This document shows positions 27,121 through 46,090 of a stretch of DNA of 64,000 nucleotides, piece by piece; the first letter of the stretch is position 1, and each line of letters begins with the position of its first letter. Origin of the DNA: Mesorhizobium huakuii (GTDB lineage: Bacteria > Pseudomonadota > Alphaproteobacteria > Rhizobiales > Rhizobiaceae). Where the stretch lies: assembly GCF_014189455.1 (NCBI RefSeq), contig NZ_CP050298.1, forward strand, positions 247,264-311,263, given 5' to 3'. Both the position numbers and the translations under genes were made by a program. The notes beneath the pieces were generated by a model. It searched no databases. It saw only the letters and a list, made by a program, of their open reading frames with translations, and had not been told where the DNA came from.

Positions 27121-28910
27121 CGATGACCCCACTTAAACACCGCCTGTAAGAATATGTTATTATATCAGCACGTTAGGCGCGCGCCGGCGCGTGTTACCAC
27201 TACATTTTGGGGATGATCTCAGGCGAGTTGTTCGTCGAGGTTGTGTGGCAGAGCGATGCCAGATGCCTTGAAGACGTTGCCCACTTGGCCCGTAACGTGG
27301 GTTCTGGTGGTGACGATGCGACCATCCTTTTCGATGGTGGCTTCCTGGAGGCGGTCGAGATCGCGTAGAAGCGGCTGCCAACCGGGCGTCAGGCCTTTGG
27401 CCCGGCAGAGGCGGTACAGTTCCTTGCTGAGTACGAGCCCCAGGAACGAGCAGAACACATGCCCGCGGATGGCGGCATCGGATTGGTGGAAGATCGGCCG
27501 GGTATTGAAGGTTGCCTTGGCGGCGCGGAACAGGCTCTCGACCTCGAGCAAATCGCGATACCGCAGCACGGCCTGGAGCGGGGTCACCTTCGCGTTGGTC
27601 CGCACCACGGTGATACCGTCGTAGCGGGCTTCCTCGGCAAGCTTGCCGACATCGATCTTGAAGTTCTTGCCGCTGGTCTTGAGGTAACGCCGGTAGGCCG
27701 AGTTGCCGACCAGTGCCTTGTCGCCCTTCTTGAGCTGCGCCTCGAGGCCGGCGATGATCGCCTGGCGGTCGGCCTTGTCCTTCTCGGCCTCGGCGTCATT
27801 GCGGCTGACGATGTAGCGGTCTTTACCGACCTTGACCTCTTTGACCCACAACTGAGTTTCACCGCGCTGGCGCTCGAGAACGAGCGGAACCATCGGTGCC
27901 GCGTCATTGAGCACGACGTTGTGGATCACGCTGATCGAGCGTTCGCGGGCCCCCAGAATGTATTCCATGCCCAGCTTTTCGAGCGCGGCGATGGTATCGG
28001 CGCTGATCATGCCGCGATCGGCGACAACGCAGGCGCGTGTGACGCCGAAGCGCGTTCGCAGCCGATCGACCACCGGCAACAGGACGGTCACGTCAGCGGT
28101 GTTGCCGGGTACCATCTCGGTGCAGATCGGCCGGCCCTCGGCATCAACGACCAGCGCCAGGATCATTTGCGCCAGATCGGGGCGGAAGTCCTTGGAATGC
28201 CCGCGCTTGCCCAGCGTCTCGCCGCCCGCGCCGTAGAAGGATAACGAGGTGGTGTCCATGAACACAAGGCTGAGGTCGGTGAACAGGTCCTGCCGGCGCG
28301 CGAAGAGCTTTTCCTCGATCGCGTCTTTCACGCAGCGCGCCACCAGCGCGCCTTGCGCCTTTTCGCCGAGTTCCTCGCCCAGCCACGCCATTGCCCGGTA
28401 AAAGTGATGGAGCGCCAGACCCTCGGCGCCCTCGATACCATAATCGGCCATCCAGTTCGCGCAGTCGCGGTCCGAGCCCGAGACGAACAGCCGATGCAGC
28501 GTGCCAACGAACACCGCCCGTTCCACCGCAAAGCCGAACTGGCGCCCTTCCAGCACCTCTTCCAGCACCTCGCCGATCCCGAGCCGCTCCCACAGCCGCC
28601 CGAACAACAGCGGACCGCCGATGCGGCGAGAGGCAATTCGCCCCGCGTCAATGTCGGACAGGATGAGGCTGCGTTCGCCATGGCGCGCAATCGAGGCCGC
28701 CAATCTGTCAAGTTCGCCGCTGGCAACCAGCGCATCCTTGCGGCCCAGCGCCTTTATCGTGCGCTGGCGAACGGTTTTGCCGTCGCGGACACTTTCCACG
28801 AGGTAAAGATAGCGGTGGCCGCGCGCGACTCTCTCAACGACAAACATGCCAGCGTTGTTAGCGAATAAATGCCATCACATCCATACAACATACGGCTAGC
28901 AGATCAAATG
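27121..28910 (-). mobile_element. IS1634-family element, complete copy
   Basis: The left boundary is where both IS1634 copies begin to match (ATGACCCCACTTAAACACC). The right boundary is less certain. A GTTACCAC(T)ACATTTT block occurs at both 27191 and 28914, but in the same orientation; the latter may be the end of a second, related element. Confidence 0.7.
27219..28847 (-). CDS. IS1634-family transposase
   Basis: A 542-residue DDE transposase of the IS4 superfamily. It starts MFVVERVARGHRYLYLVESVRDGK, the family's typical opening. The catalytic residues lie in LVFMDTTSLSFYG (first Asp), CVVADRGMISADTI (second Asp) and the C-terminal YRDLLEVESLFRAAK Glu region. The reading frame is intact. 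The truncated copy at 20324-21109 is nearly identical. Confidence 0.9.
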   Translation of the reverse strand: MFVVERVARGHRYLYLVESVRDGKTVRQRTIKALGRKDALVASGELDRLAASIARHGERSLILSDIDAGRIASRRIGGPLLFGRLWERLGIGEVLEEVLEGRQFGFAVERAVFVGTLHRLFVSGSDRDCANWMADYGIEGAEGLALHHFYRAMAWLGEELGEKAQGALVARCVKDAIEEKLFARRQDLFTDLSLVFMDTTSLSFYGAGGETLGKRGHSKDFRPDLAQMILALVVDAEGRPICTEMVPGNTADVTVLLPVVDRLRTRFGVTRACVVADRGMISADTIAALEKLGMEYILGARERSISVIHNVVLNDAAPMVPLVLERQRGETQLWVKEVKVGKDRYIVSRNDAEAEKDKADRQAIIAGLEAQLKKGDKALVGNSAYRRYLKTSGKNFKIDVGKLAEEARYDGITVVRTNAKVTPLQAVLRYRDLLEVESLFRAAKATFNTRPIFHQSDAAIRGHVFCSFLGLVLSKELYRLCRAKGLTPGWQPLLRDLDRLQEATIEKDGRIVTTRTHVTGQVGNVFKASGIALPHNLDEQLA

Positions 28911-30813: not shown

Positions 30814-31368
30814 TTAGAATGGGCTTGGGGCAGCGAGCCGGCCGGATTGGGCGCTGATGCCGCTGTCGACGACCACAAGCGGGACACCGTGCCGTTTCGC
30901 GGCGCTCAAGATCAACGGTCTAACCTCTTGGCGGTATTTGGCTATTTTGGCCAGCATGCGGGTGAAATCGCCCCTCGCCGTGGGAGTGGGGCGCGAATCT
31001 AGCGGAACCCGTTTCGGCAAAAGGCTCATGTCACCGCCGGCGATGCGCATGACCCTAGCGACAAAGCGCCATTCACAAAGCCAGGCCGGCGCTTCAACCA
31101 AATAGACCAGCTCCGCTCTTTCGATGCGCATGTCGATCGTTTCGACATATCCGCCTTCGACGACGAAGGCCTCGGCAGCAAGCTGCATTCTTAGGGTGTG
31201 GAGCCAATCTTGCTTGTTCGGGCGTTCCCAATTCGGCCCCCAGTAGAGATCATCGAGGGCAAGTAAGGGCAGATCGAGGCTATGAGCGAGCCGCCGTCCA
31301 AAGGTCGATTTTCCGCTACCCGGAGAGCCGAAGACGCTGATCCTGCTGGCACGGGATTTGGACAACAT
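30814..31368 (-). CDS. Adenylate-kinase-like P-loop kinase of the nucleoside cluster
   Basis: A 184-residue small kinase. The Walker A motif GSPGSGKST is at residues 14-22, with LALDDLYWGPNW and FVVEGGYVETIDMRIERAELVYLV forming the substrate and NMP-like region, as in topology-modulation/adenylate-kinase-like proteins. It starts 9 bases after the carbamoyltransferase stop, so it is the last gene of the left arm. A kinase of adenylate-kinase type also occurs in the pseudouridimycin cluster (PumH, as I recall). Here it could phosphorylate a nucleoside or nucleotide intermediate or act in self-protection; that is inference. Confidence 0.8.
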   Translation of the reverse strand: MLSKSRASRISVFGSPGSGKSTFGRRLAHSLDLPLLALDDLYWGPNWERPNKQDWLHTLRMQLAAEAFVVEGGYVETIDMRIERAELVYLVEAPAWLCEWRFVARVMRIAGGDMSLLPKRVPLDSRPTPTARGDFTRMLAKIAKYRQEVRPLILSAAKRHGVPLVVVDSGISAQSGRLAAPSPF

Positions 31369-31377
31369 AAGCGATCT

Positions 31378-32865
31378 CTAGAAAATCTCTATGCCATGCA
31401 ATTCCGAGAAGCGTCGGGCATCCTCGGCGGAGTTCACCAGAGGCTCCCCCTTGATGTTGAGGGAGGTGTTGAGCAGCAACGGGCAGCGTGTCTGTTGGTA
31501 GAATGCGTTTAGAAGTTGATGCACTGAGGCGTTCTGCGCTGCATTTAGGGTCTGGACGCGGCTGGTTCCATCCACATGGCAAACTGCTGGAATCGCTTCC
31601 GGCTTTCGGCACTTGGCGACGAACTGCATATAGGGGACACGCTGCAGAGGCATTTCAAAGTACTCTGGCGCATGTTCCTCCAAAATGATGGGGGCAAAAG
31701 GCCTGAAAAGCTCCCGTTTTTTGATCCGATTGACCTTTTCCTTAGCTCCGGGACCTCGCGGGTCCGAAAGCAGGCTTCGATTGCCCAATGCCCTCGGCCC
31801 GAACTCGGCGCGACCATGCGCAACGCCGATAACCTTACCCTTGACCAGGCTGCGAAGCGCTCCGTCGATATTGAGTCCCCGGCCGATGTCGTGGCCGAGA
31901 TAGGGTCCGCGCCACTGCACCCATTCTCCGCGCTGTGCGAGCGCGGCGCCGAGGCTGCTGCCGGCATCCCCCGGTTCCGGCATGATCCATATGTTGTCGA
32001 ACCAGCCTTCTCGCGCCAACATTCCGTTGAAGACGCAATTGAGCGCAACGCCGCCGGAATAGACCAGATTCTTGCTCGGTAGCTCCGTTCTCACCCATTG
32101 GAACACTTCCCGCAGCAGCCGCTCGGTCACGCTTTGGCAACTCGCTGCAATATTCTCGATATCGGTGAGGTCGGTCCGCCAGTCGCGTATCCCCCGGTGG
32201 AGGTTCCGGCGGAACCGCAAGCGGTCTGGCCGAGGATCGGCGATGAAATCATCGAAAATGTGGTCAACGTATCGATCGTCTCCGAACGCCGCCAGGCCCA
32301 TCATGATGTATTCTTCCTCGTTCGGCCGGAAGCCGCAACGGTCGGTAAAGCCGGAATAGAACAGGCCGATGCTATGCGGATAACGAACAGTCAGCACGCG
32401 TTCGATCGTGCGATCGGATGCACGCCATGCCGTAAGAGTGTCCCATTCGCCTATACCATCTATGACGACGATGCTGGCATCCCGGAAAGTCGAGGTGAAA
32501 TAGCCGCCGCACGCATGGGAGAAATGATGACCATGAGACGCGACAGGCCGTCCTCGCAACAAGGGGAACCGCGCCAGATAGCTGCGAGCGCCGGGGGTCG
32601 TCAGCAGCCGGCGATATTGCCCGGCGAACAGTTCACGGCTGCGCTTAAGGTTCTGGTTCTCATAATAGGCGATCTCGAAGGGGATGCGGACATGGGCTTC
32701 CACATCGTCCAGAAGCCCATCGCAAAGATACCGGTCCATCTTTTGACGGCTGAAACGCTCCGAATGGGCCGCGTAGACAATCTCGTCGTCGCGGACAACC
32801 GCGAGCGCCGCATCATGACTGAGACAGCTCGCGCCGACAATGTCAGGAGCGGTTGGCCTACTCAT
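31378..32865 (-). CDS. NodU/TobZ-family carbamoyltransferase
   Basis: A 495-residue enzyme that transfers a carbamoyl group from carbamoyl phosphate through carbamoyl-AMP to a hydroxyl or amino group. The start is the ATG of MSRPTAPDIVGASCLSHDAA; the open frame upstream is not family-like. Conserved segments are HDAALAVV, SERFSRQK, HGHHFSHACGGYF (metal/Kae1 domain), VYSGGVALNCVFNG, and in the C-terminal YrdC-like domain GRAEFGPRALGNRSLL and NTSLNIKGEPLVNS. It is intact. In antibiotic clusters such enzymes decorate sugars; malayamycin carries a urea-type carbamoyl group, and polyoxin uses a carbamoylated side chain. Acts in the cytoplasm on the nucleoside core (inference). Confidence 0.9.
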   Translation of the reverse strand: MSRPTAPDIVGASCLSHDAALAVVRDDEIVYAAHSERFSRQKMDRYLCDGLLDDVEAHVRIPFEIAYYENQNLKRSRELFAGQYRRLLTTPGARSYLARFPLLRGRPVASHGHHFSHACGGYFTSTFRDASIVVIDGIGEWDTLTAWRASDRTIERVLTVRYPHSIGLFYSGFTDRCGFRPNEEEYIMMGLAAFGDDRYVDHIFDDFIADPRPDRLRFRRNLHRGIRDWRTDLTDIENIAASCQSVTERLLREVFQWVRTELPSKNLVYSGGVALNCVFNGMLAREGWFDNIWIMPEPGDAGSSLGAALAQRGEWVQWRGPYLGHDIGRGLNIDGALRSLVKGKVIGVAHGRAEFGPRALGNRSLLSDPRGPGAKEKVNRIKKRELFRPFAPIILEEHAPEYFEMPLQRVPYMQFVAKCRKPEAIPAVCHVDGTSRVQTLNAAQNASVHQLLNAFYQQTRCPLLLNTSLNIKGEPLVNSAEDARRFSELHGIEIF

Positions 32866-33139
32866 AAATGAATGGATCCCGCCGCCGGCTCGCCAAGATA
32901 CGCTCAACCAGGCCCTTCGGCCGCTCTGGCTCGGGCGGCGCCTTTCTTGCGGCGGCCGCGCCCGGCCGCTTCGGCAGGCCGACCTTCCGATCGAGGATTC
33001 TGGCTTTGGTCGTTCCGGAATAGGCGATCCCCGTGCACCCGACGCTTTTCTGGGCGACCCCCTGCGTCTGGAGATACTCGGCAAGAGCAGCCGCCCATGC
33101 TATGTGGCCCTCACCGTCAGGATGACCCCCCCGAGGCCT

Positions 33140-33796
33140 TTACCGTCGCGGCGGCTTGTATGCGCTCGGGCTCCCCATTTTGCCCGGAGCCAAAAAATGC
33201 CGATCAAGTATCTGGGACATATAGGGCTGCAGGCTGCCGCCCGAATGCTCGTCAATGTCGGCCAGACTCTCAAGCGCATTGAAGAACAGGTAGGGGATGC
33301 TCGCACGCTCGAGCGCCCATTTGAGCGTCAGGACCTGCGTGGCGAACCGTATGGCCGATTCCTCATCGCTCCACGCGATTTCACGATAGGCTCGGTTGAT
33401 CATCGCCGCAGGCGCATCGGTATAGTCATGGTATGGAATGAGCTGGCGCCACTCGCCGGAAATATGGAACTCCCGGCGCATCGGCGATGACCAGCCGATC
33501 ACGACCAGCAATTCCGCGCCGGCCGCTTTCAGCGCAGGGACATCTTCCACCAGCCAGCGAATGGTCGAGCGCAGGATGCGGTCGTTGGAGCTGCCGGGAA
33601 ATCCGTCATTGACGACGCTCGTATAGCCAAGCAGCCGCCCCAGTTGACCCGGCCAGGCGGCCCGCCACCGTGCCTCATTGTCAAAGCAGAACCCGGTATT
33701 CGGATCGTCGAACAGGTCGGTTCCGTAACACATAGAACAGCCGTTCGCGAACAAAACTCTGTCTGTCATTGACGCACCGACGGAACCTTCAGTCAC
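33140..33796 (-). CDS. SGNH-hydrolase-like protein of unknown role
   Basis: A 218-residue protein starting VLFANGCSMCYGTDLFDD, with VVNDGFPGSSNDRILRSTIRWL and LLVVIGWSSPMRREF. This arrangement (G-C-S near the N-terminus, GxSND in the middle) resembles SGNH/GDSL hydrolases or DUF6071-type proteins. The GTG at 33796 overlaps the aminotransferase stop (translational coupling); an ATG at 33769 is the alternative. It is part of the left arm between the aminotransferase and the carbamoyltransferase. A catalytic Ser/Asp/His set is not certain, and I assign no reaction. Confidence 0.6.
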   Translation of the reverse strand: MTEGSVGASMTDRVLFANGCSMCYGTDLFDDPNTGFCFDNEARWRAAWPGQLGRLLGYTSVVNDGFPGSSNDRILRSTIRWLVEDVPALKAAGAELLVVIGWSSPMRREFHISGEWRQLIPYHDYTDAPAAMINRAYREIAWSDEESAIRFATQVLTLKWALERASIPYLFFNALESLADIDEHSGGSLQPYMSQILDRHFLAPGKMGSPSAYKPPRR

Positions 33797-34928
33797 TTGT
33801 TTGAGCAGCAGGCGGCGGAACAGCCGCGATGGCGTCCAGCACGCCCTGCATTAGCGGCCAATGCGCTATCCCGAAGCGGACGCATCCAGCCAGACCAACC
33901 TCCCGGCTAGTGTCGCGGATATAGACCCCACGCGTGTCGAGATGCTTGACGACCTCGGCCGGCTCGTAGCCGCGGACGGCCACATTCACATAGTTGCCGG
34001 CCGACGGGAGCACCCGCCAACCCGGCCGCTGGAGCGCCAATGCTGCCCCGAATTTCTCGCGCGCCAGAATGATGTCCTTCCAGATCGATTTGAGCTCCTC
34101 CGGCCGACCGAGCAGGGCCTCAAGCATATGAAGGGATGCTCCTGAAACAGCGCCGTCCATTCTGTAGGCACCGAGAAGGCGAGCCAGACGGGGTGGCGAC
34201 ATGCCGACGGCGATCCGCGCGCCTGCCAGACCCAAACTCTTTGAGAATGACCGTACCAGGAAGACGTGGTCGTAAGATCCGAGGAGCTCGACGTGGTCCG
34301 TTTCCGCGAAGGCTGCGAAGCATTCGTCTACCACCAGCAGGTGGTGATGTCGCCCGCACGATTCGGCCAGCTCAATCAGTTCACTGCCGGACATTAGGTG
34401 ACCGGTGGGGCTATTGGGGTTGGAAATGACCACCAGCGACGGTGGCTTACTCCGTAATGTATCCAGAAGCGCCTGAAACCCCATCGCCATCGCATCCGGC
34501 ACCCTGATAGACGCGTGGGTTACGTCAAGCTTTCGCAGCGCGGCATAGTGCGCCCAGCCGAAGTAATTGGGCACCTGCAGAATCATGCGCCCGGTGGCCG
34601 ACCCAAAAGCGTCGACAATCGCAGCGATCAGAGCATCGGACCCTGCGGCCAGCGTCAGCCGCTCCGAGGGAACGCCAAGCCGCCGGCCGATCCCTCCTAT
34701 GGCCAAGCTAGCAAAGGGGTAGAACTGGGTATGCGCGGTGTCGGGCGCGACCTCCCGCAAAAGCTCTGTCATCCGGGGATGGTGCAGTTCGCAGCTTCGC
34801 AGATTGATCCCGTGATTGGCGGGAAGGCGGTTGTGGCGTGCGAGATCACCGACTTCCGGCAACGGAAACCGCCAAATATCGCATTCGGCTGCTTGAGATT
34901 GGCGGGGAAATTCCATCCTATGAGTCAT
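33789..34928 (-). CDS. PLP-dependent aminotransferase, class I/II (HisC-like)
   Basis: A 379-residue fold-type I aminotransferase. Visible are AGSDALIAAIVDAF (cofactor phosphate region), VVISNPNSPTGHLMS (NPNxPTG), LLVVDECFAAFAE (the Asp that pairs with the pyridine nitrogen) and VRSFSKSLGLAGARIA (Schiff-base Lys). The start is the ATG of MTHRMEF. The first gene of the left arm, it follows a promoter at 34952-34979. In nikkomycin and polyoxin pathways a HisC-like aminotransferase (NikK/PolI by my recollection) installs the 5'-amino group of aminohexuronic acid; the same role is proposed here. Confidence 0.87.
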   Translation of the reverse strand: MTHRMEFPRQSQAAECDIWRFPLPEVGDLARHNRLPANHGINLRSCELHHPRMTELLREVAPDTAHTQFYPFASLAIGGIGRRLGVPSERLTLAAGSDALIAAIVDAFGSATGRMILQVPNYFGWAHYAALRKLDVTHASIRVPDAMAMGFQALLDTLRSKPPSLVVISNPNSPTGHLMSGSELIELAESCGRHHHLLVVDECFAAFAETDHVELLGSYDHVFLVRSFSKSLGLAGARIAVGMSPPRLARLLGAYRMDGAVSGASLHMLEALLGRPEELKSIWKDIILAREKFGAALALQRPGWRVLPSAGNYVNVAVRGYEPAEVVKHLDTRGVYIRDTSREVGLAGCVRFGIAHWPLMQGVLDAIAAVPPPAAQTSD

Positions 34929-34951
34929 AGCTTGAGTTTCACATGCCGAAT

Positions 34952-34979
34952 TATCTACCTCTACATAAATCAAGGTCAA
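34952..34979 (-). promoter_or_regulatory. Sigma-70-type promoter of the left arm
   Basis: On the reverse strand TTGACC (34979-34974), 16 bases, then TAGATA (34957-34952), about 24 bases before the aminotransferase ATG. The 34929-35075 interval is AT-rich and separates two divergent arms. On the forward strand TTGACA near 35034 with a weak -10 near 35057 could serve the pseudouridine synthase gene. Confidence 0.5.
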
Positions 34980-35075
34980 GCGAAAACAAATAATATCTGA
35001 AAATATATTCGAAGATATCAATGTGTAAGTGGTTGACATCCACTACACGCCAAACGCATACCTAACTGTCACCAA

Positions 35076-36143
35076 GTGATCGCCAATAAAGCTCCGGAGT
35101 TGTTGAACTTGCCTGGGGATGGGTACAATCATCGATTAAAATTTGTGCCAGAGGACTTTTTGGTCCAAGAGGTGTTGATGCCAACTTTGGCTGCGCGTCC
35201 CTCCGAGGTCCATCCGTATTTTTTACTGCGTAAGCGGGGCTTCACGACGTTTCAGGCCGTTCGACGGCTCGCCGAGGCGACTGGAGTGGACGCCAAGGTA
35301 GTCGCCTATGCCGGGCTGAAGGACGAAGACGCCGTCACGGAGCAGCACATTAGCGTCGGTGCTGACCTGCCCGCCGAGAGCGTGCAGAGCTTCAATGCTG
35401 CGTACGAAGGGAAGTCCGAATTTATTCAAGTAGTGAGCCTGGGCCGCGAGGGCGGAGCGATCCGCGTCGGCCACCTGATCGGCAACGCGTTCAGGATCGC
35501 AATCCGGGATTTGGATGAGAAGCTAGTCGCAAGGCTGGCGTCGCGAAGATCGAGCGAACTTGTCTTCATCAACTATTACGACACGCAACGCTTCGGCGTT
35601 CCCGGCGGTCCGAAGACCACTCACCTGATTGGCGACCGGCTGCATGCGGGCGCCTACGACGAAGCGCTGGCGCTGTTGAGGCAGTCACGGGCGGAGGAGG
35701 CGCTGTTGGCGCAATCCTGGTCGGGCCGCGCCGAACAATTCTTTTGCGAATTGGACCCGCGAATTGTGCGTTTATATTACGCGGCTTATTCGTCCTATCA
35801 ATGGAACACCCAGCTGGCAGACAGTATTGCCGGTGAGGCTGGCGTCCAGGAACTGACGCGTCCACCCCTGAAGTGCCTCCTCACTGTAGAGCCTCGACTG
35901 CTGGAGCGCATCCGCCAGCGAGCTCTGACTCATCCGCTCCGACGTTTTTCGTGTGCGCCGGGCTTTCCAGAAGTCGATCCCGAGGTTCGTCCGGGGTTGA
36001 TACAGGCGCGGATCAGGGTCGTCGAACACGGTCTCGACGAGTTTCATCAAGGGCGCAACAAAGTAACCGTAGAGATGTTTCTTCCAAGTGGCTGCTATGC
36101 CACGATGGCTATAAATCAGTTCGTGACATTTTGCAGATATTAG
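35076..36143 (+). CDS. TruD-like pseudouridine synthase in a biosynthetic cluster
   Basis: A 355-residue TruD-family enzyme. The catalytic motif AGLKDEDAVTEQHIS places the nucleophilic Asp at residue 83; NYYDTQRFG (166-174) is the second family signature. Length is close to E. coli TruD (349). TruD normally makes pseudouridine-13 in tRNA(Glu) and stands among housekeeping genes. Here it opens an arm of enzymes for nucleoside modification, as MalD (malayamycin) and PumJ (pseudouridimycin) do, where it supplies pseudouridine monophosphate. It starts with GTG without a strong ribosome site. The gene looks intact. The function as C-nucleoside supplier is inferred from neighbours. Confidence 0.9.
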   Translation: MIANKAPELLNLPGDGYNHRLKFVPEDFLVQEVLMPTLAARPSEVHPYFLLRKRGFTTFQAVRRLAEATGVDAKVVAYAGLKDEDAVTEQHISVGADLPAESVQSFNAAYEGKSEFIQVVSLGREGGAIRVGHLIGNAFRIAIRDLDEKLVARLASRRSSELVFINYYDTQRFGVPGGPKTTHLIGDRLHAGAYDEALALLRQSRAEEALLAQSWSGRAEQFFCELDPRIVRLYYAAYSSYQWNTQLADSIAGEAGVQELTRPPLKCLLTVEPRLLERIRQRALTHPLRRFSCAPGFPEVDPEVRPGLIQARIRVVEHGLDEFHQGRNKVTVEMFLPSGCYATMAINQFVTFCRY

Positions 36144-36156
36144 GCGGATAGATATC

Positions 36157-37440
36157 GTGCGCGTTCTATGCATTATTCCACCATATATCCCTAGTTACTT
36201 CAATGCAGGGCATCATATTCCGATCTTCCAGGTCTCTACTTACCTCAGAAGCCAGAGGCATTCGGACGAAATAGTTGCTCTGGACTGTGCAGCTCTGAAC
36301 TTAACCTGGCGCGATATCGCTGAACTCCTGGTGCAGAAGTTCGACGTCATAGCACTGCTGAACGACTTTGACGGCGTCGACACCTTTCCGCGAATGCTGC
36401 GCTACGTGCGCGAATTTTCTCCCTCAGCCAAGGTGATGACCTTCGGCCGGCTTTCCAATCAGGTTCCGGGCCTCTTTGAGCGCTTCGGATTCCACGGCAT
36501 TGCATCGGCAGGCGACTACGAGGCGTCGGTGGCCGGCTTCATCGACTGGATTGCGGACGGAAAGACGATACCACCGGGCGTCTCGCTCCGGCAGGAAGAC
36601 GGCTACGGGAAACCTGCCCCCGGGATTTTTCTCCATGCCGAGCATTGGGCTTTCCCCGACGTCCGGGATATTCCCTACGGAGCGTATGACCGGCTGTACC
36701 AGCAGGACTCGAACAAATTCTGCGGCATTCCCGAACGCCGTGAGCTTGTTGTGCCCCTGGCGCGGGGGTGCTCAGTCGGCTGCGCTTATTGCGACGTTCC
36801 CACCATGCAGGGATTACGCGAACGACGCGCAGGGGTCGTGCCTACCCTCGACTATATCCAACAATCCTTTGACGAGGGGCCGTTTGAATATGTTTCGTTC
36901 TACGCCCCGACCTTCACACTGAAGAAGGCGTGGGTTCGGGCATTCTGTGCGGAAAAGGAGCGGCGCGGCCTGAGGTTTCCCTGGAAATGCGTCACCACGT
37001 TGTTCCATCTCGATCCCGAGCTTCTGGCCACCATGGCGGGCGCCGGCTGTGTGCGGGTGAGCATAGGCCTCGAGACGCTGGACGTTGGCGCTGCGGGAAG
37101 TTTGCCGAAGATCAAGCAAGATAGCCTAGACGCATTTCGGCGGCTTGCCAGCGCGGGCCGCGCCTCTGGGGTTGAGTTGAACTGCTTTGTCATCGTCGGG
37201 TTGCCGGGCGACAGCATCCAGGGGATCGATCAGACTATTTCGGAGGTCCTTGCACAGGGCAGCCGCGTGCGACCGACCGTCTACACGCCATACGACAGGA
37301 TCGAGGCGGATATGACGCTGGAAGAGGTTGGTGGGTTCAATCGCCAGATGTTCGTCGAGGATATTTACTCGGGTGAGCAGAAAGATCTGCTCTACAAACT
37401 GCTGTTCGGGAACCATGCTGATCGCGCCACAAAGTCATGA
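36157..37440 (+). CDS. NikJ/PolH-like radical SAM enzyme (octosyl-acid type)
   Basis: A 427-residue radical SAM protein. The N-terminal ~140 residues resemble a B12-binding-type Rossmann domain (MRVLCIIPPYIPSYFNAGHH...). The cluster motif is CSVGCAYC (Cys205, 209, 212) followed by DVPTMQGLRERR. The TIM-barrel ends with LNCFVIVGLPGDS. In nikkomycin/polyoxin biosynthesis the radical SAM enzyme closes 3'-enolpyruvyl-UMP to octosyl acid phosphate. Its pairing here with an enolpyruvyltransferase and a phosphatase makes that the likely job, on pseudouridine instead of uridine. GTG start 13 bases after the truD stop. Confidence 0.82.
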   Translation: MRVLCIIPPYIPSYFNAGHHIPIFQVSTYLRSQRHSDEIVALDCAALNLTWRDIAELLVQKFDVIALLNDFDGVDTFPRMLRYVREFSPSAKVMTFGRLSNQVPGLFERFGFHGIASAGDYEASVAGFIDWIADGKTIPPGVSLRQEDGYGKPAPGIFLHAEHWAFPDVRDIPYGAYDRLYQQDSNKFCGIPERRELVVPLARGCSVGCAYCDVPTMQGLRERRAGVVPTLDYIQQSFDEGPFEYVSFYAPTFTLKKAWVRAFCAEKERRGLRFPWKCVTTLFHLDPELLATMAGAGCVRVSIGLETLDVGAAGSLPKIKQDSLDAFRRLASAGRASGVELNCFVIVGLPGDSIQGIDQTISEVLAQGSRVRPTVYTPYDRIEADMTLEEVGGFNRQMFVEDIYSGEQKDLLYKLLFGNHADRATKS

Positions 37441-37475
37441 ATCGAATTGGCATCCGTAGATCTCTGGTGTGAGTC

Positions 37476-38127
37476 ATGAATAGTTATGCGGATATTTCGT
37501 TACGATTTGAAAATTGTTCGTTCCATAGTGAAAAATTCCATTGGGGATGTATTGTAGATTACTTTGAATATGCGACCTATGATCAGTTATTTAATAGCTT
37601 TCCTTGCGATGGTTTCGTCCTGACGGAGAAGGCCGGCGGGCCCTCCGCCAAAAGCTACAAGACATACAACTTGATGGTGATGAAGAATGGGGAGCGGAAA
37701 CCGGAATATTATGGCCTGACTCCACTTTGGCAGGAGGCCGTCAGTGCCTTGGTCGGCGACCACAATATAGCCGGCCTGGAGAAGTTGACCGGCAAGTCCC
37801 TTTGGGGGGACGTTGGCCGAAGTGCGGTTCGTGATTTATTCGGAAGGATGCTGGATTGGCCCGCATCTGGACCGTCCGGACAAACGCCTCACCCAAATCG
37901 TCTATCTGCAGCACCCTCAAGACCGACTGGTCGGGGGGGATCTTCTGATCCTGGGCTCCGACAAGATGGACGATGTGGTGAGGAGCGTTCCTCCCCGTCC
38001 CAACATGTCAGTTGTCCTGCTGCCATCAAGTCAGTCTTGGCATGCAGTGTCTATGCTCGAAAGCGCGTCCAACGCGCCTCGGCGTTGCGTTTTGGTGCAT
38101 TTTTCGGAGGTCAATGATGAGCGCTAG
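37476..38127 (+). pseudogene. 2OG-Fe(II) oxygenase 1, broken by a one-base shift
   Basis: The front (MNSYADISLRFENCSFHSEKF... to LTGKSLWG) and the rear (TLAEVRFVIYSEGCWIGPHLDRPDK... to VHFSEVNDER) are in different frames. They join perfectly if the G6 run at 37804-37809 had five G. The rear holds the iron ligands HLD and SWHAV and the 2OG-binding Arg in APRRCVLVHF. It is clearly paralogous to the next gene (same GPHxDxPDK and LILGSD blocks). Nikkomycin and polyoxin pathways use such dioxygenases to shorten and oxidise octosyl acid. If the shift is a read error the enzyme is intact, ~217 residues. Confidence 0.82.
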
Positions 38128-38755
38128 TTTCAGTGAGCTGGTACACTCCCTGCGAGGGGCACAATGGCGGAACGACCCGTATTTTTGGGCGGTCGTCGAT
38201 GAATTTGTTTCGCCCGGTTTTGCCGAGCGTCTCGCCGCTACCATCCCCGCAGCGGGGTTCAGTGCCAGCGAAAGGCCCAGCGGCGACCCCGGACATAGAA
38301 AACCTTACCGCCTCGAAAGCAAGGCTCTAAATGCTGAAGACGACGACAAATATACGCCGGCCTGGCGGGATTTCCTCCGGGCCTTGAGGTCCAGCGAATA
38401 TCGCACCGCCATGAGCGAAGTGATTGGTATCGACCTGAGCGGTCTCAATCTCGAACTGTCCCTGTGGCACTACCCGCCGGGGGGATGGCTCGGCCCGCAT
38501 ACGGATAAGCCGGACAAGGTCGTCACCCAGGTTTTCAATCTCAATCCGGGCTGGGAGCGCGAATGGGGCGGCTGCCTTCGTATCCTGGGATCAGACCAAG
38601 AGAAGGACGTCGTTGCCGAAATACCGCCAGTCCTGAACTCGTCGGTTATACTTCGGCGAAGCGATAATTCCTGGCACATGGTAACCAGGACGCAGGAGAG
38701 TGAGGGTGCACCTCGCCTTCGACAAGTGCTGACCGCCATGTTCCGCGCTTTGTAA
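38114..38755 (+). CDS. 2OG-Fe(II) oxygenase 2
   Basis: A 213-residue prolyl-hydroxylase-like dioxygenase. Ligand set GPHTDKPDK (His, Asp) and NSWHMV (distal His); the Arg for 2-oxoglutarate is in APRLRQVLTAMF. GGAGG-type ribosome site (GGAGG at 38106) supports start 38114 or 38117, overlapping the end of oxygenase 1. It is a tandem paralogue of oxygenase 1 with about half the residues alike in the C-terminal part. Predicted to hydroxylate or oxidatively cleave the bicyclic sugar in the C-nucleoside route. Confidence 0.85.
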   Translation: MMSASFSELVHSLRGAQWRNDPYFWAVVDEFVSPGFAERLAATIPAAGFSASERPSGDPGHRKPYRLESKALNAEDDDKYTPAWRDFLRALRSSEYRTAMSEVIGIDLSGLNLELSLWHYPPGGWLGPHTDKPDKVVTQVFNLNPGWEREWGGCLRILGSDQEKDVVAEIPPVLNSSVILRRSDNSWHMVTRTQESEGAPRLRQVLTAMFRAL

Positions 38756-39387
38756 TGTCTTCGGTCGACGGCGAGGGCGCGTTTGCAAGCGCAGCCGATG
38801 GGGTTTGTCCATTCCGCCTTAGGGATGGCCTGCCCCCTCTAGGCGAATTCACGATCGGGGCCGATTTTGCGGATCTTCTGGTATCGGAGGCCACAAGTCG
38901 GCGTCCGCGCGCCGTCCTGGAGGCCGGCAGTGGTATCTCTACGGTTTTGCTAGGACACTGCATGCAGCTTTGGGCTGGCCATGTCTATGCGCTGGAGCAC
39001 CTGCCCCAATATGCGCAGCTGACCCGCGAATGGGCTGTTCGGCACGGCGTCCAGAACATCACCGTCATTGATGCTCCGCTACAGACGCACGTGATCGGTG
39101 GCGAGCAGTGGGACTGGTACGACATCTCCAATGTTCCGGCCATCGCATATGACTTTCTTGTCGTCGATGGTCCGCCGCGCAAGACCGGCGCGCTGGCCCG
39201 GTACCCGATGCTTCCGCTTTTTGCCAAACAGCTCGGCCCATCGCCCTGTCTCCTTCTGGACGATGCGGACCGGGCGGACGAAGAGGCCATCGTTCGCCGG
39301 TGGCAAGCCGAATTTCCTCAGTTCCGAACCCAGAGGCATCAAACCCAGAAGGGAGCCGTGCTGATGACAGCGGGCTCTGCATCATGA
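38755..39387 (+). CDS. SAM-dependent methyltransferase-like protein
   Basis: A 210-residue class I methyltransferase fold: RAVLEAGSGISTVLLG (motif I), HVYALEHLPQYAQLTREWA (motif II acidic residue), YDFLVVDGPPRKTG (motif IV) and a closing beta hairpin. Its ATG overlaps the oxygenase stop (TAATG), and its own stop overlaps the next ATG (ATGA), so it is translated with its neighbours. Malayamycin has an O-methyl group, which makes an O-methyl transfer on the sugar plausible; substrate is inferred only. Confidence 0.75.
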   Translation: MSSVDGEGAFASAADGVCPFRLRDGLPPLGEFTIGADFADLLVSEATSRRPRAVLEAGSGISTVLLGHCMQLWAGHVYALEHLPQYAQLTREWAVRHGVQNITVIDAPLQTHVIGGEQWDWYDISNVPAIAYDFLVVDGPPRKTGALARYPMLPLFAKQLGPSPCLLLDDADRADEEAIVRRWQAEFPQFRTQRHQTQKGAVLMTAGSAS

Positions 39388-40714
39388 CATCCTCATGGGT
39401 GGTGAACGGCGGACGGCCCCTCGCTGGGGAGGTACAGATTTCTGGCTTTAAGCATGCCGCGCTGCCTCTCGTGGCGGCCGGGATGTTGGCCAGCGGGCCC
39501 TTCGAACTCGCGAACGTTCCTGACGTCGAAGATGTCAGAGTGATCGCGGAACTGTTAGTGCATGCAGGTGCGTCCGCTCGCCACGATCGCGCAGGTCGCC
39601 GATTGCTGGTCGATCCGACAACAATTTCCAACGGCACGCTTCCAAGTGCTCTGACCCGCCGGGTGCATGGTTCTCTCTACATGGTTCCAGGGCTGCTCGG
39701 CAAGTTAGGGGAGGTCCACGCCGGGCCGTTCGGTGGATGCAGGATCGGGGAGGCGTCAGCGGGGGGAGAGCGTCCCCTCGAGCACATCCGGGAAGTGTTG
39801 CAAAGATTTGGCGCCACTGCGGAAATCCAGGGCGGGATGCTCTCTGCCTCATGCAAGCAATTATGCGGCTGCACCATCAACATGGCTGACTTTGCCAAGG
39901 AACTGTCCAATGGCGGGGGATTGACCGGTCCCCTCTACTCGGGCGCCACCAAAGCCGCGCTCTTGTGTGCTGCAACGGCGGCTGGAGTGACCGAAATCCA
40001 CAGCCCCTATCGCAAGGCGGACGTGGCTGACCTGATTGGCGGAATGATCGCCGCAGGGGTGAGCATAGAGGATCGAGACGACGTTTTGCGTGTTGAGGGG
40101 CGGCCTTGCCTCCAGGCGTTCCAATATGAGGTGTCGTCCGACGCGATCGAAATCGTGACCTTCTTCACGCTCGCCGCCTACCTTCAAGCAGACATCCGGC
40201 TGACCGGGATCGCTGACAAAACATGGGCAGGACTGGCCGCCGAACTTGACTGCTTTGATCGCATGGGCCTGACCGTCGAGCGTTTGAAGCAGTCGAGGTT
40301 GAGCCTACGGGCCGATCATATGAACGGCATAGACATTCGCGTCTCTTCGCATGGAATATTCAGCGACAGTCAACCATTCTTCGCGCTGCTCCTGTCGGGT
40401 ACAGAGAGGGGGGCAAGATAGAAGAGCATGTATGGGTCAACCGCTTCGACTACGCCAGCGGCCTCACGGCTCTGGGAGCCGAAATGCACAGTGATGGACC
40501 TGTCCTACATATCACCCCTGGCCGGGCGGCCCGGCCAGGGCAAACGGTCCGAGGCAATGATCTGCGGGCCGCCGCTACCCTTGTGCTGGCCGCCCTCGGT
40601 ATCGATGGCGAAACAATCATCCAAGGTGTCGAACACCTGGGGCGCGGCTATGCGGATCTTGCCGGGCAGTTGACGAGTCTCGGGGCCAGTATTGATCAGC
40701 GGGCTACATCGTAG
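39384..40714 (+). pseudogene. MurA/NikO-like enolpyruvyltransferase, one-base shift near the end
   Basis: An EPT-fold enzyme: VQISGFKHAALPLVAA (Lys23, equivalent to MurA Lys22) and GPFGGCRIGEASAGGERPLEHI with Cys119 at the MurA Cys115 position. Frame 1 ends GTERGAR-stop at 40421. The remainder (KIEEHVWVNRFDYASGLTALGA... to EHLGRGYADLAGQLTSLGA) is in another frame and is the expected MurA-like end. Seven instead of six G at 40408-40413 would join them into ~443 residues. In nikkomycin, polyoxin and malayamycin clusters such enzymes move enolpyruvate from PEP to the nucleotide 3'-OH. Its position excludes a cell-wall role. Confidence 0.85.
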
Positions 40715-40774
40715 GTCGCGCTTCCTGCATCGTGTTTCGGCATCGTCGGGCCGCTGCGGCAACGATTATTCAGA

Positions 40775-41551
40775 ATGGCACTATTGACGAGTCGATTGAT
40801 CCGCCTGGAAGGCACGCGAAATATGCGTGGGCTCGGTGGGCTACGGGTGGCGGACGGCGGTTTCGTCAACCCAAGGCGCCTTTTGCGTAGTGCGGCCCCG
40901 ATCAACTTGGATGTGCCAACCGCTCGGCATTTAATGGCCGAATATGGGCCACTGCGAATCCTGGATCTGCGCACGACTCGGGAGATCGACAGGGAAGGGA
41001 TGCCCGAGGCGTTGATAGGCCTGGGAGCGGAGTTCTGGCACCGTCCTCTGTCGGACCCGAGCTTTCTCCTCGATGTCGTGCGCCCGACTTGGCAGGATTA
41101 TTTCTCATCCTATGTGCGGCTAATGCCCTCTGCAGATAACGTCATCGTAGACCTAGCGGCCGCGTACGCCGCTCAGACCGCGAAGACGACCATAGTTTGC
41201 TGCACGGCCGGTAAAGACAGGACCGGCGTGGTGGTAGCAATGCTGCTTCGCCTTGTGGGCGTATCAACGTCGGACATCGCCCGAGATTACGCGCTTTCGG
41301 CTCGACAACTTCGGGCTCATCTCGGCTCGTTCAAGGCACATTGGGAGAAGCGAGGCCTATCGCCCCAACAATACGCAATCCGTCTTGAGACCCAAGCGAG
41401 AACAATGACGGCTCTCCTCGCCCATCCTGAGACGCAGTGGCATATTGACAGTGTCGAGCGTGAACTCGGCGGAGAAACAATCCGAAGGCTGAGGGCCACG
41501 ATGATCGATCACCGCCATCAGGGCGAAGCGTCCAGAGGGCGAACTGTGTGA
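40775..41551 (+). CDS. Tyrosine-phosphatase-fold phosphatase (NikL/PolJ-like)
   Basis: A 258-residue Y_phosphatase3-family enzyme. The phosphate loop VCCTAGKDRTGVV (Cys ~148, Arg ~154) is complete; the N-terminal TRNMRGLGGLRVADGGFVNPRRLLRSA stretch is the family's usual opening. Phosphatases of this type (PolJ, NikL) remove the 5'-phosphate of octosyl acid phosphate, so it should act after the enolpyruvyltransferase and the radical SAM enzyme. It begins 60 bases after the EPT stop and is the last gene of the right arm; IS6 material follows after ~190 bases. Confidence 0.85.
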   Translation: MALLTSRLIRLEGTRNMRGLGGLRVADGGFVNPRRLLRSAAPINLDVPTARHLMAEYGPLRILDLRTTREIDREGMPEALIGLGAEFWHRPLSDPSFLLDVVRPTWQDYFSSYVRLMPSADNVIVDLAAAYAAQTAKTTIVCCTAGKDRTGVVVAMLLRLVGVSTSDIARDYALSARQLRAHLGSFKAHWEKRGLSPQQYAIRLETQARTMTALLAHPETQWHIDSVERELGGETIRRLRATMIDHRHQGEASRGRTV

Positions 41552-43929: not shown

Positions 43930-46090
43930 ATGAACTCGAATTTGAAATGTTTGGCCCAAGCAACTGCCATCGCCTTGCTCTGGAAGGTCAGCGCTACGTC
44001 GGCGCACGAAGGTATGTGGATGCCGGGCCAGATTGCGGACGTGGGCGCGGCCATGCGCGCGGATGGGCTCCAGATCGATCCCGCCCTGTTGCGCCGTCTG
44101 GACACTGGCCCGCTCAACGCGATCGTATCACTGGGCGGATGCTCCGCCTCCTTCGTCAGTCCACAAGGGCTGGTCGCAACCAATCATCACTGCGTGTTCG
44201 GATCTATCCAGTACAACAGCAAGGAGGGACAGGACTATCTCACAAACGGCTTTCTGGCGAAGAGCCTGGGTGAAGAATTGCCCGCGGCGCCTGGCAGCCG
44301 CATCTATGTGATCGAGGATATGCGGGATGTGACCGCCGACATGCTCAAGGGCGTTTCGGACAAGCTGAACGGCTTTGCCCGCTATGAGCGGCTCGACACG
44401 AACCGCAAGGCGCTCATCGCTGCATGTGAAGCACAGCCCAATCGCCGCTGCGACGTGGAGGGCTATTATGGCGGCGACTCCTACTATCTCGAGCAGAAGC
44501 TCGAAATTCAGGACGTGCGCCTCGCCTATGCGCCCGCGCTCGGCATCGGTAACTTCGGCGGCGAAACGGACAATTGGATGTGGCCGCGCCACACAGGCGA
44601 CTTCGGCTTTTATCGCGCCTATGTCGCTCCTGATGGTTCCTCCCGGCCTTATGCGCGCGACAATGTGCCCTACCGGCCGAAGAGCTGGCTGCGCATCGCC
44701 CATGAAGGTGTTCAAGAAGGCGATTTCGTGATGGTCGCCGGCTTTCCGGGGACGACCAATCGGTTGCGCACCGCTGGCGAAGTCCAGTTCAACTTCGCGG
44801 ACTACGAACCGCTGCTGCAGCGTTTGTTGTCGGACTATGCCGCCCAGATCAAGCGAGCCACGGCAGGCAATCGTGACGCGCAGATCCGCTACGCCGCCAT
44901 CCTGCAAGGCGCGGAAAACTACGAGAAGAAACTAGCGGGCGATCTCGCCGGCGCCGATGCGATTGGGCTCGATGCTCGCAAGGCCAACGAGGAGAAAGCT
45001 TATCGCGACTGGGTCGCTGACGATCCCCGCGCGGCAGGCGCGCTATGACACAGCAATCCGCGAACTGGACGCCATGGTGGCCGAGAATAGCCGGGCCTCA
45101 CTCAAGGGGCTGCGGCAGGCGCTGCTGGACCGCGCGCAAATCCTCTCATCCGCGCGCACTCTCTATCGCTGGGCGAAGGAGCACGAGAAGCCCGATGAAG
45201 ACCGTGAAAGCGGCTTTCAGGATCGTGACCGTAACGAGACCGTCGATCAACTGACGCAGATAGAACTCCGTTATCTGCCCGACATCGATCGCAAGCTCTT
45301 CGAGGCCGCGCTCGATGAATATCGTCGGCTGGACGCAAAGGATCGCGATACTGCGTTCGAGACCGCTCTGGACCAAATCGGCCTTGACCGACTCTATGCG
45401 GACACCAAACTCGCCGACACGGCCACGCGGCTCGGCTGGCTCGGTAAGCCGGCTACTGCCTTCGAGGCGTCGGATGATCCTTTCATCAAGCTGGCGGTCG
45501 CGCTCTATCCCGGCGACATAGCTGCGGAGGTCGCGAAGAAGGACCGCGCCGGCCGTACGCAGGCGCCCCGCGCGACCTATATGCAGGGTCTGCGTGTCTA
45601 TCGGCAGGCAATCGGCCAGCCAGTGTATCCCGACGCGAATGGATCGCTGCGCATCACTTGGGGCAAGGTGGCAGGGCGAACGCGCGATGGGCAGATCTGG
45701 ACGCCCTTCACCACGGCCGAGGGACTTCTGGCCAAGCACACTGGCAGGGGCGAGTTCGATGCGCCGGATGCCGTGGTTGCCGCGATTCGGGCCAAGGACT
45801 ATGGCCCATATGTCGCGCCGGCGCTGGGCACGTTGCCGGTCGACTTCATGTCCACGGTTGACATCACCAACGGCAACAGTGGCTCGGCGACGCTGAACGG
45901 GCGTGGCGAGTTCGTGGGTCTCGTGTTCGACGGCACGCTCGAGGGCGTGATCTCGGACTGGGCCCCCGACGCGGACCGCAATCGCAGCATCCATGTCGAC
46001 AGTCGCTTCATGATCTGGACCATGGACAAGATCGACGGCGCGGGCCGGTTGCTCAAGGAAATGGGAGTGCGGCCGGCGCCGCGCTCCTGA
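43930..46090 (+). pseudogene. S46-family dipeptidyl-peptidase (DPP7/DPP11-like), one-base shift
   Basis: A periplasmic serine peptidase that removes dipeptides from peptide N-termini. A signal peptide (MNSNLKCLAQATAIALLWKVSATSA) leads to mature HEGMWMPGQ. The catalytic His lies in LVATNHHC (about 82-88), the Asp region in NWMWPRHTGDF, and the Ser in NGNSGSATLNGRGEFVGL. The frame breaks in the C4 run at 45025-45028; with three C the text reads WVADDPARQARYDTAIREL and the protein is ~719 residues, the normal family length. So it may be intact apart from a read error. The sigma-54 promoter and UAS upstream match those of the S9 peptidase and RiPP loci. Confidence 0.87.

What the first reader, a model, noticed from the sequence alone, without database searches (positions are those of the whole stretch)
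30814..41551. Putative C-nucleoside antibiotic cluster (malayamycin/ezomycin-like) outside actinomycetes
Seen: TruD-like synthase, radical SAM enzyme, two 2OG-Fe(II) oxygenases, methyltransferase, EPT-fold enzyme, PTP-fold phosphatase, HisC-like aminotransferase, NodU-type carbamoyltransferase, kinase and SGNH-like protein in two compact divergent arms. Known: in nikkomycin/polyoxin, EPT (NikO/PolA), radical SAM (NikJ/PolH), phosphatase (NikL/PolJ), dioxygenases and an aminotransferase build aminohexuronic acid from UMP. Malayamycin adds a TruD-like enzyme to use pseudouridine monophosphate, and its product carries O-methyl and carbamoyl groups. Inference: this alphaproteobacterial cluster makes a related carbamoylated, methylated high-carbon-sugar C-nucleoside. 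I know of no such cluster described from this group.
Basis: partly seen in the sequence, partly recalled or inferred. Interest (0 to 1): 0.95.

Follow-up and report, generated by a model that had tools for sequence, protein, structure and literature searches.

The report
Malayamycin-type nucleoside cluster in nodule bacteria
A DNA stretch shared with a plasmid of the legume-nodule bacterium Mesorhizobium loti carries counterparts of ten genes from what is likely the malayamycin cluster of Streptomyces malaysiensis, so it is predicted to make a related carbamoyl-bearing, probably antifungal-type C-nucleoside; whether it is active is untested.

Summary
In detail: all the enzymes named lie at 30814-41551 in two divergent arms. 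The EPT is NikO-type, not MurA (188.7 against at most 104.8 bits). Ten of the eleven genes have homologues in one locus of Streptomyces malaysiensis subsp. samsunensis, same species as the malayamycin producer. Most telling are the carbamoyltransferase (58%) and a DUF6071 protein, which occur together with TruD in 1 of 26 related loci. The eleventh gene, a methyltransferase, was found in none of the 26. The region matches M. loti 582 plasmid p_2 at 99.9% over 14.6 kb. Core order TruD-rSAM-OX1-OX2-EPT is that of Xenorhabdus, and the EPT groups there. So EPT/rSAM/TruD sets outside actinomycetes are not new; I found no description of this combination in rhizobia. It is rare: rSAM in 2 of 146 genomes of the genus and 1 of 385 of the class. 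New here: the five DUF6071 loci examined outside Mesorhizobium (about three lineages) also hold this carbamoyltransferase clade, four with no nucleoside gene found, suggesting a carbamoylation pair. Caveat: several reading frames break at homopolymers, mostly where two assemblies disagree; one break is shared. The product is untested.

The parts
30814..31368 (-). P-loop kinase, predicted counterpart of MalE/PolQ2/PumH (cryptic phosphorylation)
   Evidence: 40% over 80 aa to a kinase in L023 and matched in 23 of 26 loci; the MalE/PolQ2/PumH kinship is from a passage of PMC7955054, orthology here inferred
31378..32868 (-). NodU/TobZ-type carbamoyltransferase, predicted MalD counterpart (the longer ORF start at 33084 is unlikely)
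   Evidence: Pfam Carbam_trans_N/C; 58% over 487 aa to L023; 49-54% to DUF6071-linked Streptomyces copies; start as in M. loti 582
33140..33796 (-). DUF6071 (SGNH-like by motif) protein, tail frame-broken here, open in M. loti 582 (298 aa)
   Evidence: PF19547 1.9e-28; groups with the L023 copy 100/100 in a six-row tree
33789..35039 (-). PLP aminotransferase, HisC-like (true start probably downstream, as annotated in M. loti 582)
   Evidence: 35% to L023, up to 48% elsewhere
35076..36143 (+). TruD-like pseudouridine synthase, predicted C-nucleoside-forming step
   Evidence: PF01142 1.7e-42; aligned with TruD structure 1z2z incl. GxKD motif; 38% to L023, 39-40% to Xenorhabdus
36157..37440 (+). 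Radical SAM enzyme with PSYFNAGHH and CxxxCxxC, predicted octosyl C-C bond former (PolH/NikJ/MalJ role)
   Evidence: 46% to the L023 rSAM; nearest solved structure AprD4
37476..38117 (+). 2OG-Fe(II) oxygenase 1, frame-broken; the HxD-bearing half lies in another frame, about 37816-38127
   Evidence: C-terminal piece 52-54% to the Xenorhabdus oxygenase at the same syntenic place; the break is shared with M. loti 582 and lies near a G run
38012..38755 (+). 2OG-Fe(II) oxygenase 2
   Evidence: PF13640 8.9e-10; 46-48% to Xenorhabdus, 41% to L023
38755..39387 (+). SAM methyltransferase (weak Methyltransf_24 match, below the family cut-off), not found in any of 26 related loci
39384..40421 (+). NikO-type enolpyruvyltransferase, N-terminal ~80%
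   Evidence: NikO 4fqd 1.6e-54 against best MurA 5.5e-29; tree
40397..40714 (+). C-terminal piece of the same EPT in another frame (continuous with part of the gene in M. loti 582)
   Evidence: 47-51% to Xenorhabdus EPT C-termini
40775..41551 (+). PTP-fold phosphatase (Y_phosphatase3), predicted MalL/PolJ/NikL role
   Evidence: PF13350 7.3e-33; 37% to L023

Best explanation
This eleven-gene stretch, also present on a Mesorhizobium loti plasmid, is predicted to be a biosynthetic cluster that would turn a uridine nucleotide into a carbamoylated and probably methylated octosyl-type C-nucleoside of the malayamycin class. Proposed order, all inferred from homology. The TruD-like enzyme would make the pseudouridine nucleotide. 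The NikO-type EPT would add enolpyruvate to it. The radical SAM enzyme would close the C-C bond to give an octosyl skeleton. The kinase would add, and the PTP-fold phosphatase remove, protecting phosphates. The two 2OG oxygenases and the aminotransferase would oxidise and aminate the bicycle. The carbamoyltransferase, probably together with DUF6071, would carbamoylate it (a urea, if as in malayamycin; the urea is recalled). The methyltransferase would methylate it.
For: Domain content. NikO against MurA scores and EPT/rSAM/TruD trees. 10 of 11 genes matched in L023 of S. malaysiensis subsp. samsunensis. Carbamoyltransferase 58% over 487 aa, and DUF6071 grouping 100/100 with L023. Published roles of the Mal enzymes (TruD, EPT, rSAM, phosphatase, two 2OG oxygenases, aminotransferase, carbamoyltransferase, O-methyltransferase) from passages of the review PMC8724604; PolH/PolJ from two sections of PMC5365060; kinase MalE/PolQ2/PumH from a passage of PMC7955054 and cryptic phosphorylation from a passage of PMC10127198. 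Core gene order kept in Xenorhabdus. A second strain carries the same region at 99.9%.
Against: No product is known. Oxygenase 1 is frame-broken in both assemblies, and the EPT is broken in each at a different place, so a dead cluster is not excluded. The methyltransferase has no match in the S. malaysiensis genome at E <= 0.1 (no positive control). No transporter or regulator was recognised among the genes annotated at 28.9-43.5 kb. L023 is assigned to malayamycin by species and gene content, not by comparison with the deposited mal sequence, and its contig (16.3 kb) ends beside the kinase gene. The core genes do not tree with L023. The rSAM family also occurs without TruD (12 of 26 loci), and in three loci without any EPT match.
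Confidence: 0.75

Rival explanations
1. The cluster is a decaying, non-functional remnant acquired by transfer: a malayamycin-type pathway once complete, now frame-broken amid insertion sequences.
For: Frame breaks in oxygenase 1, EPT and DUF6071 as assembled; the oxygenase 1 break is shared by both assemblies; transposase genes or remnants on both sides.
Against: In the aligned 14.6 kb the six single-base length differences between the two assemblies all lie in runs of 6-8 equal bases (two in EPT, one each in oxygenase 1 and DUF6071, two outside genes of the cluster). Similar gaps and a split S46 peptidase that is a single gene in M. loti 582 lie outside the cluster. Both point to sequencing error. 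Kinase, carbamoyltransferase, aminotransferase, TruD, oxygenase 2, methyltransferase and phosphatase are open in both.
Confidence: 0.15
2. A nikkomycin/polyoxin-like or ezomycin-like product: the octosyl core is further built into a peptidyl or disaccharide nucleoside by genes elsewhere, the malayamycin resemblance being only in shared steps.
For: The octosyl core steps are shared by these pathways (PMC5365060 introduction); ezomycins too are carbamoylated and partly C-nucleosides (recalled).
Against: No peptide ligase or glycosyltransferase among the eleven genes; TruD plus the specific carbamoyltransferase and DUF6071 point to malayamycin.
Confidence: 0.1

Closest known systems
Malayamycin A cluster (Streptomyces malaysiensis), here represented by L023
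   Same: TruD, NikO-type EPT, rSAM, two 2OG oxygenases, PTP-fold phosphatase, aminotransferase, carbamoyltransferase (58%), DUF6071 (46% over the aligned part; 38% over 255 aa with the 582 copy) and kinase
   Different: Gene order differs; L023 has an MFS transporter and none was recognised here; the window methyltransferase has no match in that genome; EPT and rSAM tree elsewhere
Xenorhabdus TruD-EPT-rSAM clusters (L004-L006, L010, L011), for which I found no description
   Same: Same core order TruD-rSAM-OX1-OX2-EPT; EPT groups with the window 98/99; TruD 39-40%, rSAM 49-50%, EPT 41-43%, OX2 46-48%
   Different: No carbamoyltransferase, DUF6071 or this methyltransferase found in the loci
Nikkomycin/polyoxin clusters (NikO/PolA, NikJ/PolH, NikL/PolJ)
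   Same: NikO is the nearest solved EPT; same octosyl chemistry predicted
   Different: Those are N-nucleosides joined to amino acids; no ligase here, and a TruD-like enzyme is present
Pseudouridimycin (PumJ TruD-like)
   Same: TruD-like C-nucleoside formation, PumH-like kinase predicted
   Different: No amide-forming or oxidoreductase genes of that pathway among the eleven; EPT and rSAM added

Membership tests
Malayamycin-type octosyl C-nucleoside cluster | TruD-like pseudouridine synthase | tested here: met
Malayamycin-type octosyl C-nucleoside cluster | NikO/MalO-type enolpyruvyltransferase, not MurA | tested here: met
   4fqd 188.7 bits against best MurA 104.8; tree, outgroup row P0322 checked as MurA
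Malayamycin-type octosyl C-nucleoside cluster | MalJ/PolH-type radical SAM enzyme | tested here: met
   46% to the L023 rSAM over the whole length; motifs invariant in 19 rows. No PolH or NikJ sequence was held for direct comparison
Malayamycin-type octosyl C-nucleoside cluster | Phosphatase, aminotransferase, kinase and two 2OG oxygenases | tested here: met
   (oxygenase 1 frame-broken)
Malayamycin-type octosyl C-nucleoside cluster | MalD-type carbamoyltransferase | tested here: met
   58% over 487 aa; the other four carbamoyltransferases in the 26 loci 32-37%
Malayamycin-type octosyl C-nucleoside cluster | MalF-type O-methyltransferase | tested here: inconclusive
   A methyltransferase is present, but no match in the genome of L023 at E <= 0.1, without a positive control; 0 of 26 loci
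Malayamycin-type octosyl C-nucleoside cluster | Intact reading frames of all genes | tested here: inconclusive
   Breaks mostly at homopolymers where two assemblies differ; one shared
Malayamycin-type octosyl C-nucleoside cluster | Produces a bicyclic carbamoylated C-nucleoside | not testable with these tools
   needs expression and mass spectrometry
Nikkomycin/polyoxin peptidyl nucleoside | Ligase joining an amino acid to the nucleoside | tested here: not met
   none of the eleven ORFs matches a ligase family; genes elsewhere in the genome were not searched
Pseudouridimycin | Amide-forming and oxidoreductase genes beside the TruD-like gene | tested here: not met
   none among the eleven ORFs
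Ezomycin | Homology to an ezomycin cluster | not testable with these tools
   no ezomycin cluster sequence at hand; the paper search listed 4 papers, none announcing one in title or abstract opening

The most novel reading that the evidence does not exclude
A legume-nodule symbiont makes its own malayamycin-class antifungal C-nucleoside from a plasmid island, with its methyl group set by an unrelated methyltransferase, and the carbamoyl group is installed by a two-protein module (carbamoyltransferase plus SGNH-like DUF6071) that also occurs alone and was recruited into C-nucleoside pathways in both Streptomyces and Mesorhizobium.
Probability: 0.3. Interest if true: 0.75.

Novelty: new variant of a known kind. 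Interest (0 to 1): 0.58.

Why it matters
If active, it would place an antifungal-type nucleoside pathway in a nitrogen-fixing nodule symbiont, relevant to nodule ecology and biocontrol. It would widen a compound class that has been reviewed from actinobacteria (PMC8724604) to rhizobia, and it gives DUF6071 a testable role as the partner of a carbamoyltransferase clade. The Xenorhabdus, Legionella and Magnetococcales relatives mark a reservoir for which I found no description.

Tried and rejected
Rejected: EPT as MurA. The 4'-thiothymidine cluster of Photorhabdus asymbiotica DSM 15149 as a relative: section 7 and passages of PMC12691670 describe rSAM-kinase-triphosphatase genes thmA-C, with no EPT term in the main text, whereas in the locus L014 of that strain the rSAM is followed directly by an EPT and an oxygenase; whether thmA is a distant member of the same rSAM family was not tested. 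Structure of DUF6071: mean pLDDT 47.8 with two sequences, Foldseek best E 0.1 (two GDSL-type hydrolases on top, not significant), so the SGNH label rests on motifs (recalled) only. Methyltransferase against solved structures: no match at E <= 0.1. Papers that could not be read: Hong 2019, two Draelos papers and Sosio 2018. Paper searches, judged by titles and abstract openings: Mesorhizobium with 'nucleoside antibiotic' (1 paper, a review of N-N bond enzymes), Oxytropis kamtschatica (0), agrocin 434 (0), (25 papers, 20 listed; 8,310 papers, 20 listed, uninformative).

Results against the reading: core genes do not tree with S. malaysiensis; TruD is present in only 14 and carbamoyltransferase in only 5 of 26 loci, so the rSAM family serves other products too; 3 of 26 loci showed no EPT; the oxygenase 1 frame break is shared; the CARB-DUF6071 pairing rests on about three lineages outside Mesorhizobium, and one of the five loci was found through the carbamoyltransferase, not through DUF6071.
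Full report
Observation. ORF and family scans confirm the gene set at 30814-41551: on the minus arm a kinase, a NodU/TobZ-type carbamoyltransferase, a DUF6071 protein and a HisC-like aminotransferase; on the plus arm a TruD-like enzyme, a radical SAM enzyme, two 2OG-Fe(II) oxygenases (the first frame-broken, recognised from its pieces), a methyltransferase, an EPSP-synthase-fold enzyme and a PTP-fold phosphatase.

Where it is. The window lies at C3:247264-311263 of an 8.45-Mb genome in 4 contigs. The 14.6 kb around the cluster match Mesorhizobium loti 582 plasmid p_2 (CP050294.1, from an Oxytropis kamtschatica nodule) at 99.9% over their whole length. Part of the window to the right of about 51 kb matches that plasmid at a distant place, so the two replicons are probably rearranged relative to each other. 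An IS1634-type transposase gene lies to the left (27219-28847); to the right lie an IS66-like stretch (just under the Pfam cut-off), a stretch matching rhizobial plasmids where some records annotate an IS3 transposase, and an S46 peptidase.

Distribution. A profile of the rSAM (19 rows) found 2 of 146 genomes in the genus (the window's own, and G324, whose coordinates agree with the 582 plasmid), 1 of 297 in the family, 1 of 385 in the class and 4 of 398 in the phylum, the own genome counted each time. In named genomes 26 loci were returned, among them Xenorhabdus, Legionella, Pantoea, Photorhabdus, Pseudoalteromonas, Magnetococcales, a Caulobacteraceae MAG (also Alphaproteobacteria), Staphylococcus and actinomycetes. 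By tblastn at E <= 1e-4 with window proteins, of these 26: EPT in 22 (a 23rd, L008, by its C-terminal piece), kinase 23, TruD 14, carbamoyltransferase 5 (L008, L009, L017, L023, L024), DUF6071 1 (L023), methyltransferase 0. Loci differ in length and some end early, so the counts are lower bounds. Closer unnamed metagenome relatives exist (rSAM 71%, EPT 56%, TruD 51%), hosts unknown. A TruD relative (37%) is also listed for the alphaproteobacterium Hoeflea sp. TYP-13.

Closest match. L023 is S. malaysiensis subsp. samsunensis, the species of the malayamycin producer. It holds TruD 38%, EPT 35%, rSAM 46%, aminotransferase 35%, OX2 41%, phosphatase 37%, kinase 40% (80 aa), DUF6071 46% and carbamoyltransferase 58% over 487 aa, with two 2OG oxygenases and an MFS transporter. 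The review of C-nucleosides gives the Mal roles: TruD, MalO, MalJ, MalL, MalM/MalI, MalK, MalD, MalF (passages of PMC8724604). That L023 is the mal cluster is inferred from species and content.

Enzyme identity. The EPT's best solved relative is NikO (1.6e-54, 188.7 bits), ahead of the best MurA (5.5e-29, 104.8 bits), with the GGC loop aligned. In the EPT tree it joins an unnamed relative (P0242, 56%) and Xenorhabdus EPTs (98/99), apart from seven low-scoring rows used as outgroup, of which P0322 was checked: MurA 408 bits, NikO 128. The rSAM has PSYFNAGHH and CxxxCxxC, invariant in the 19 aligned rows; its nearest solved structure is AprD4. TruD aligns with solved TruD including the GxKD motif; that this Asp is catalytic is recalled. 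The phosphatase keeps a CX5R motif and OX2 an HxD motif (read; the meaning of these motifs is recalled).

Mosaic ancestry. Gene order TruD-rSAM-OX1-OX2-EPT matches Xenorhabdus; the OX1 C-terminal piece is 52-54% and the EPT C-terminal piece 47-51% identical there. Carbamoyltransferase and DUF6071 point instead to Streptomyces.

A possible carbamoylation pair. All five hold a carbamoyltransferase of the same clade (49-58% to the window's), adjacent to DUF6071 in four, and in those four no other window-cluster homologue was found within the fetched stretch at E <= 1e-3. Three of the five (L036, L043, L044) are very close kin, so these are about three lineages. DUF6071 of the window groups with L023 (100/100), apart from the stand-alone pairs; the carbamoyltransferase tree does not resolve window plus L023 as a pair. 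Most plasmid records with a carbamoyltransferase match (308) were not examined for DUF6071; the window's DUF6071 itself matched 1 plasmid record, 582's. DUF6071 was found in 1 of 289 genomes of the class, the own one. DUF6071 as a carbamoylation partner is inference.

Reading frames. As assembled, oxygenase 1, the EPT and the tail of DUF6071 are broken, and the rSAM tail is shorter than in relatives. The window and M. loti 582 differ in the aligned 14.6 kb by 8 substitutions and 9 gap columns: six single-base differences, all in runs of 6-8 equal bases, and one three-base gap. The N-terminal part of the EPT is open in the window and the C-terminal part in 582; DUF6071 is open in 582. A split S46 peptidase outside the cluster, a single gene in 582, and gaps elsewhere in the window suggest sequencing error rather than decay. 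The oxygenase 1 break is shared, beside a G run, and stays open as a doubt; so does the rSAM tail, where no homopolymer was seen.

Mechanism and status. Shown: gene content, kinship, order, conserved motifs, rarity in the samples searched. Inferred: every catalytic step, product class, carbamoyl and methyl groups, antifungal action. Prior print: PumJ-type TruD enzymes were already said to occur in taxonomically unrelated microbes (PMC7955054 passage), and PolH/PolJ were proposed as genome-mining probes (PMC5365060 section 10). So the kind is known; the rhizobial, malayamycin-type combination did not show in the listings of my paper searches, which cover open-licence papers only.

Noticed in passing
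L036 9487-11651; L042, L043, L044: Stand-alone carbamoyltransferase-DUF6071 pairs in Streptomyces (one on a plasmid of S. goshikiensis) without nucleoside genes found nearby: a two-gene module of unknown substrate.
   Followed up: partly
L035 14962-20084 (Rhizobium rhizogenes K84 pAtK84c): A gene annotated NikO protein (32-33% to the window EPT) beside a multidrug efflux gene, asnB, a Cof hydrolase and an ATP-binding protein, with no TruD or rSAM match: another rhizobial EPT-type nucleoside-like locus, perhaps agrocin 434 (recalled, untested).
   Followed up: partly
L008, L009 (Legionella MAGs): TruD, rSAM, phosphatase, kinase, oxygenase and a distant carbamoyltransferase (32%) together: a second proteobacterial carbamoylated C-nucleoside-like cluster.
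   Followed up: partly
L037 (Gloeothece verrucosa PCC 7822 plasmid Cy782202): A TruD-like gene (30%) in a plasmid island with ABC transporter, glycosyltransferase, sulfotransferase and pyruvyl transferase genes.
   Followed up: no
43930-46090: S46 peptidase split into two overlapping ORFs in the window but a single gene in M. loti 582, a sign of frame errors in this assembly.
   Followed up: partly
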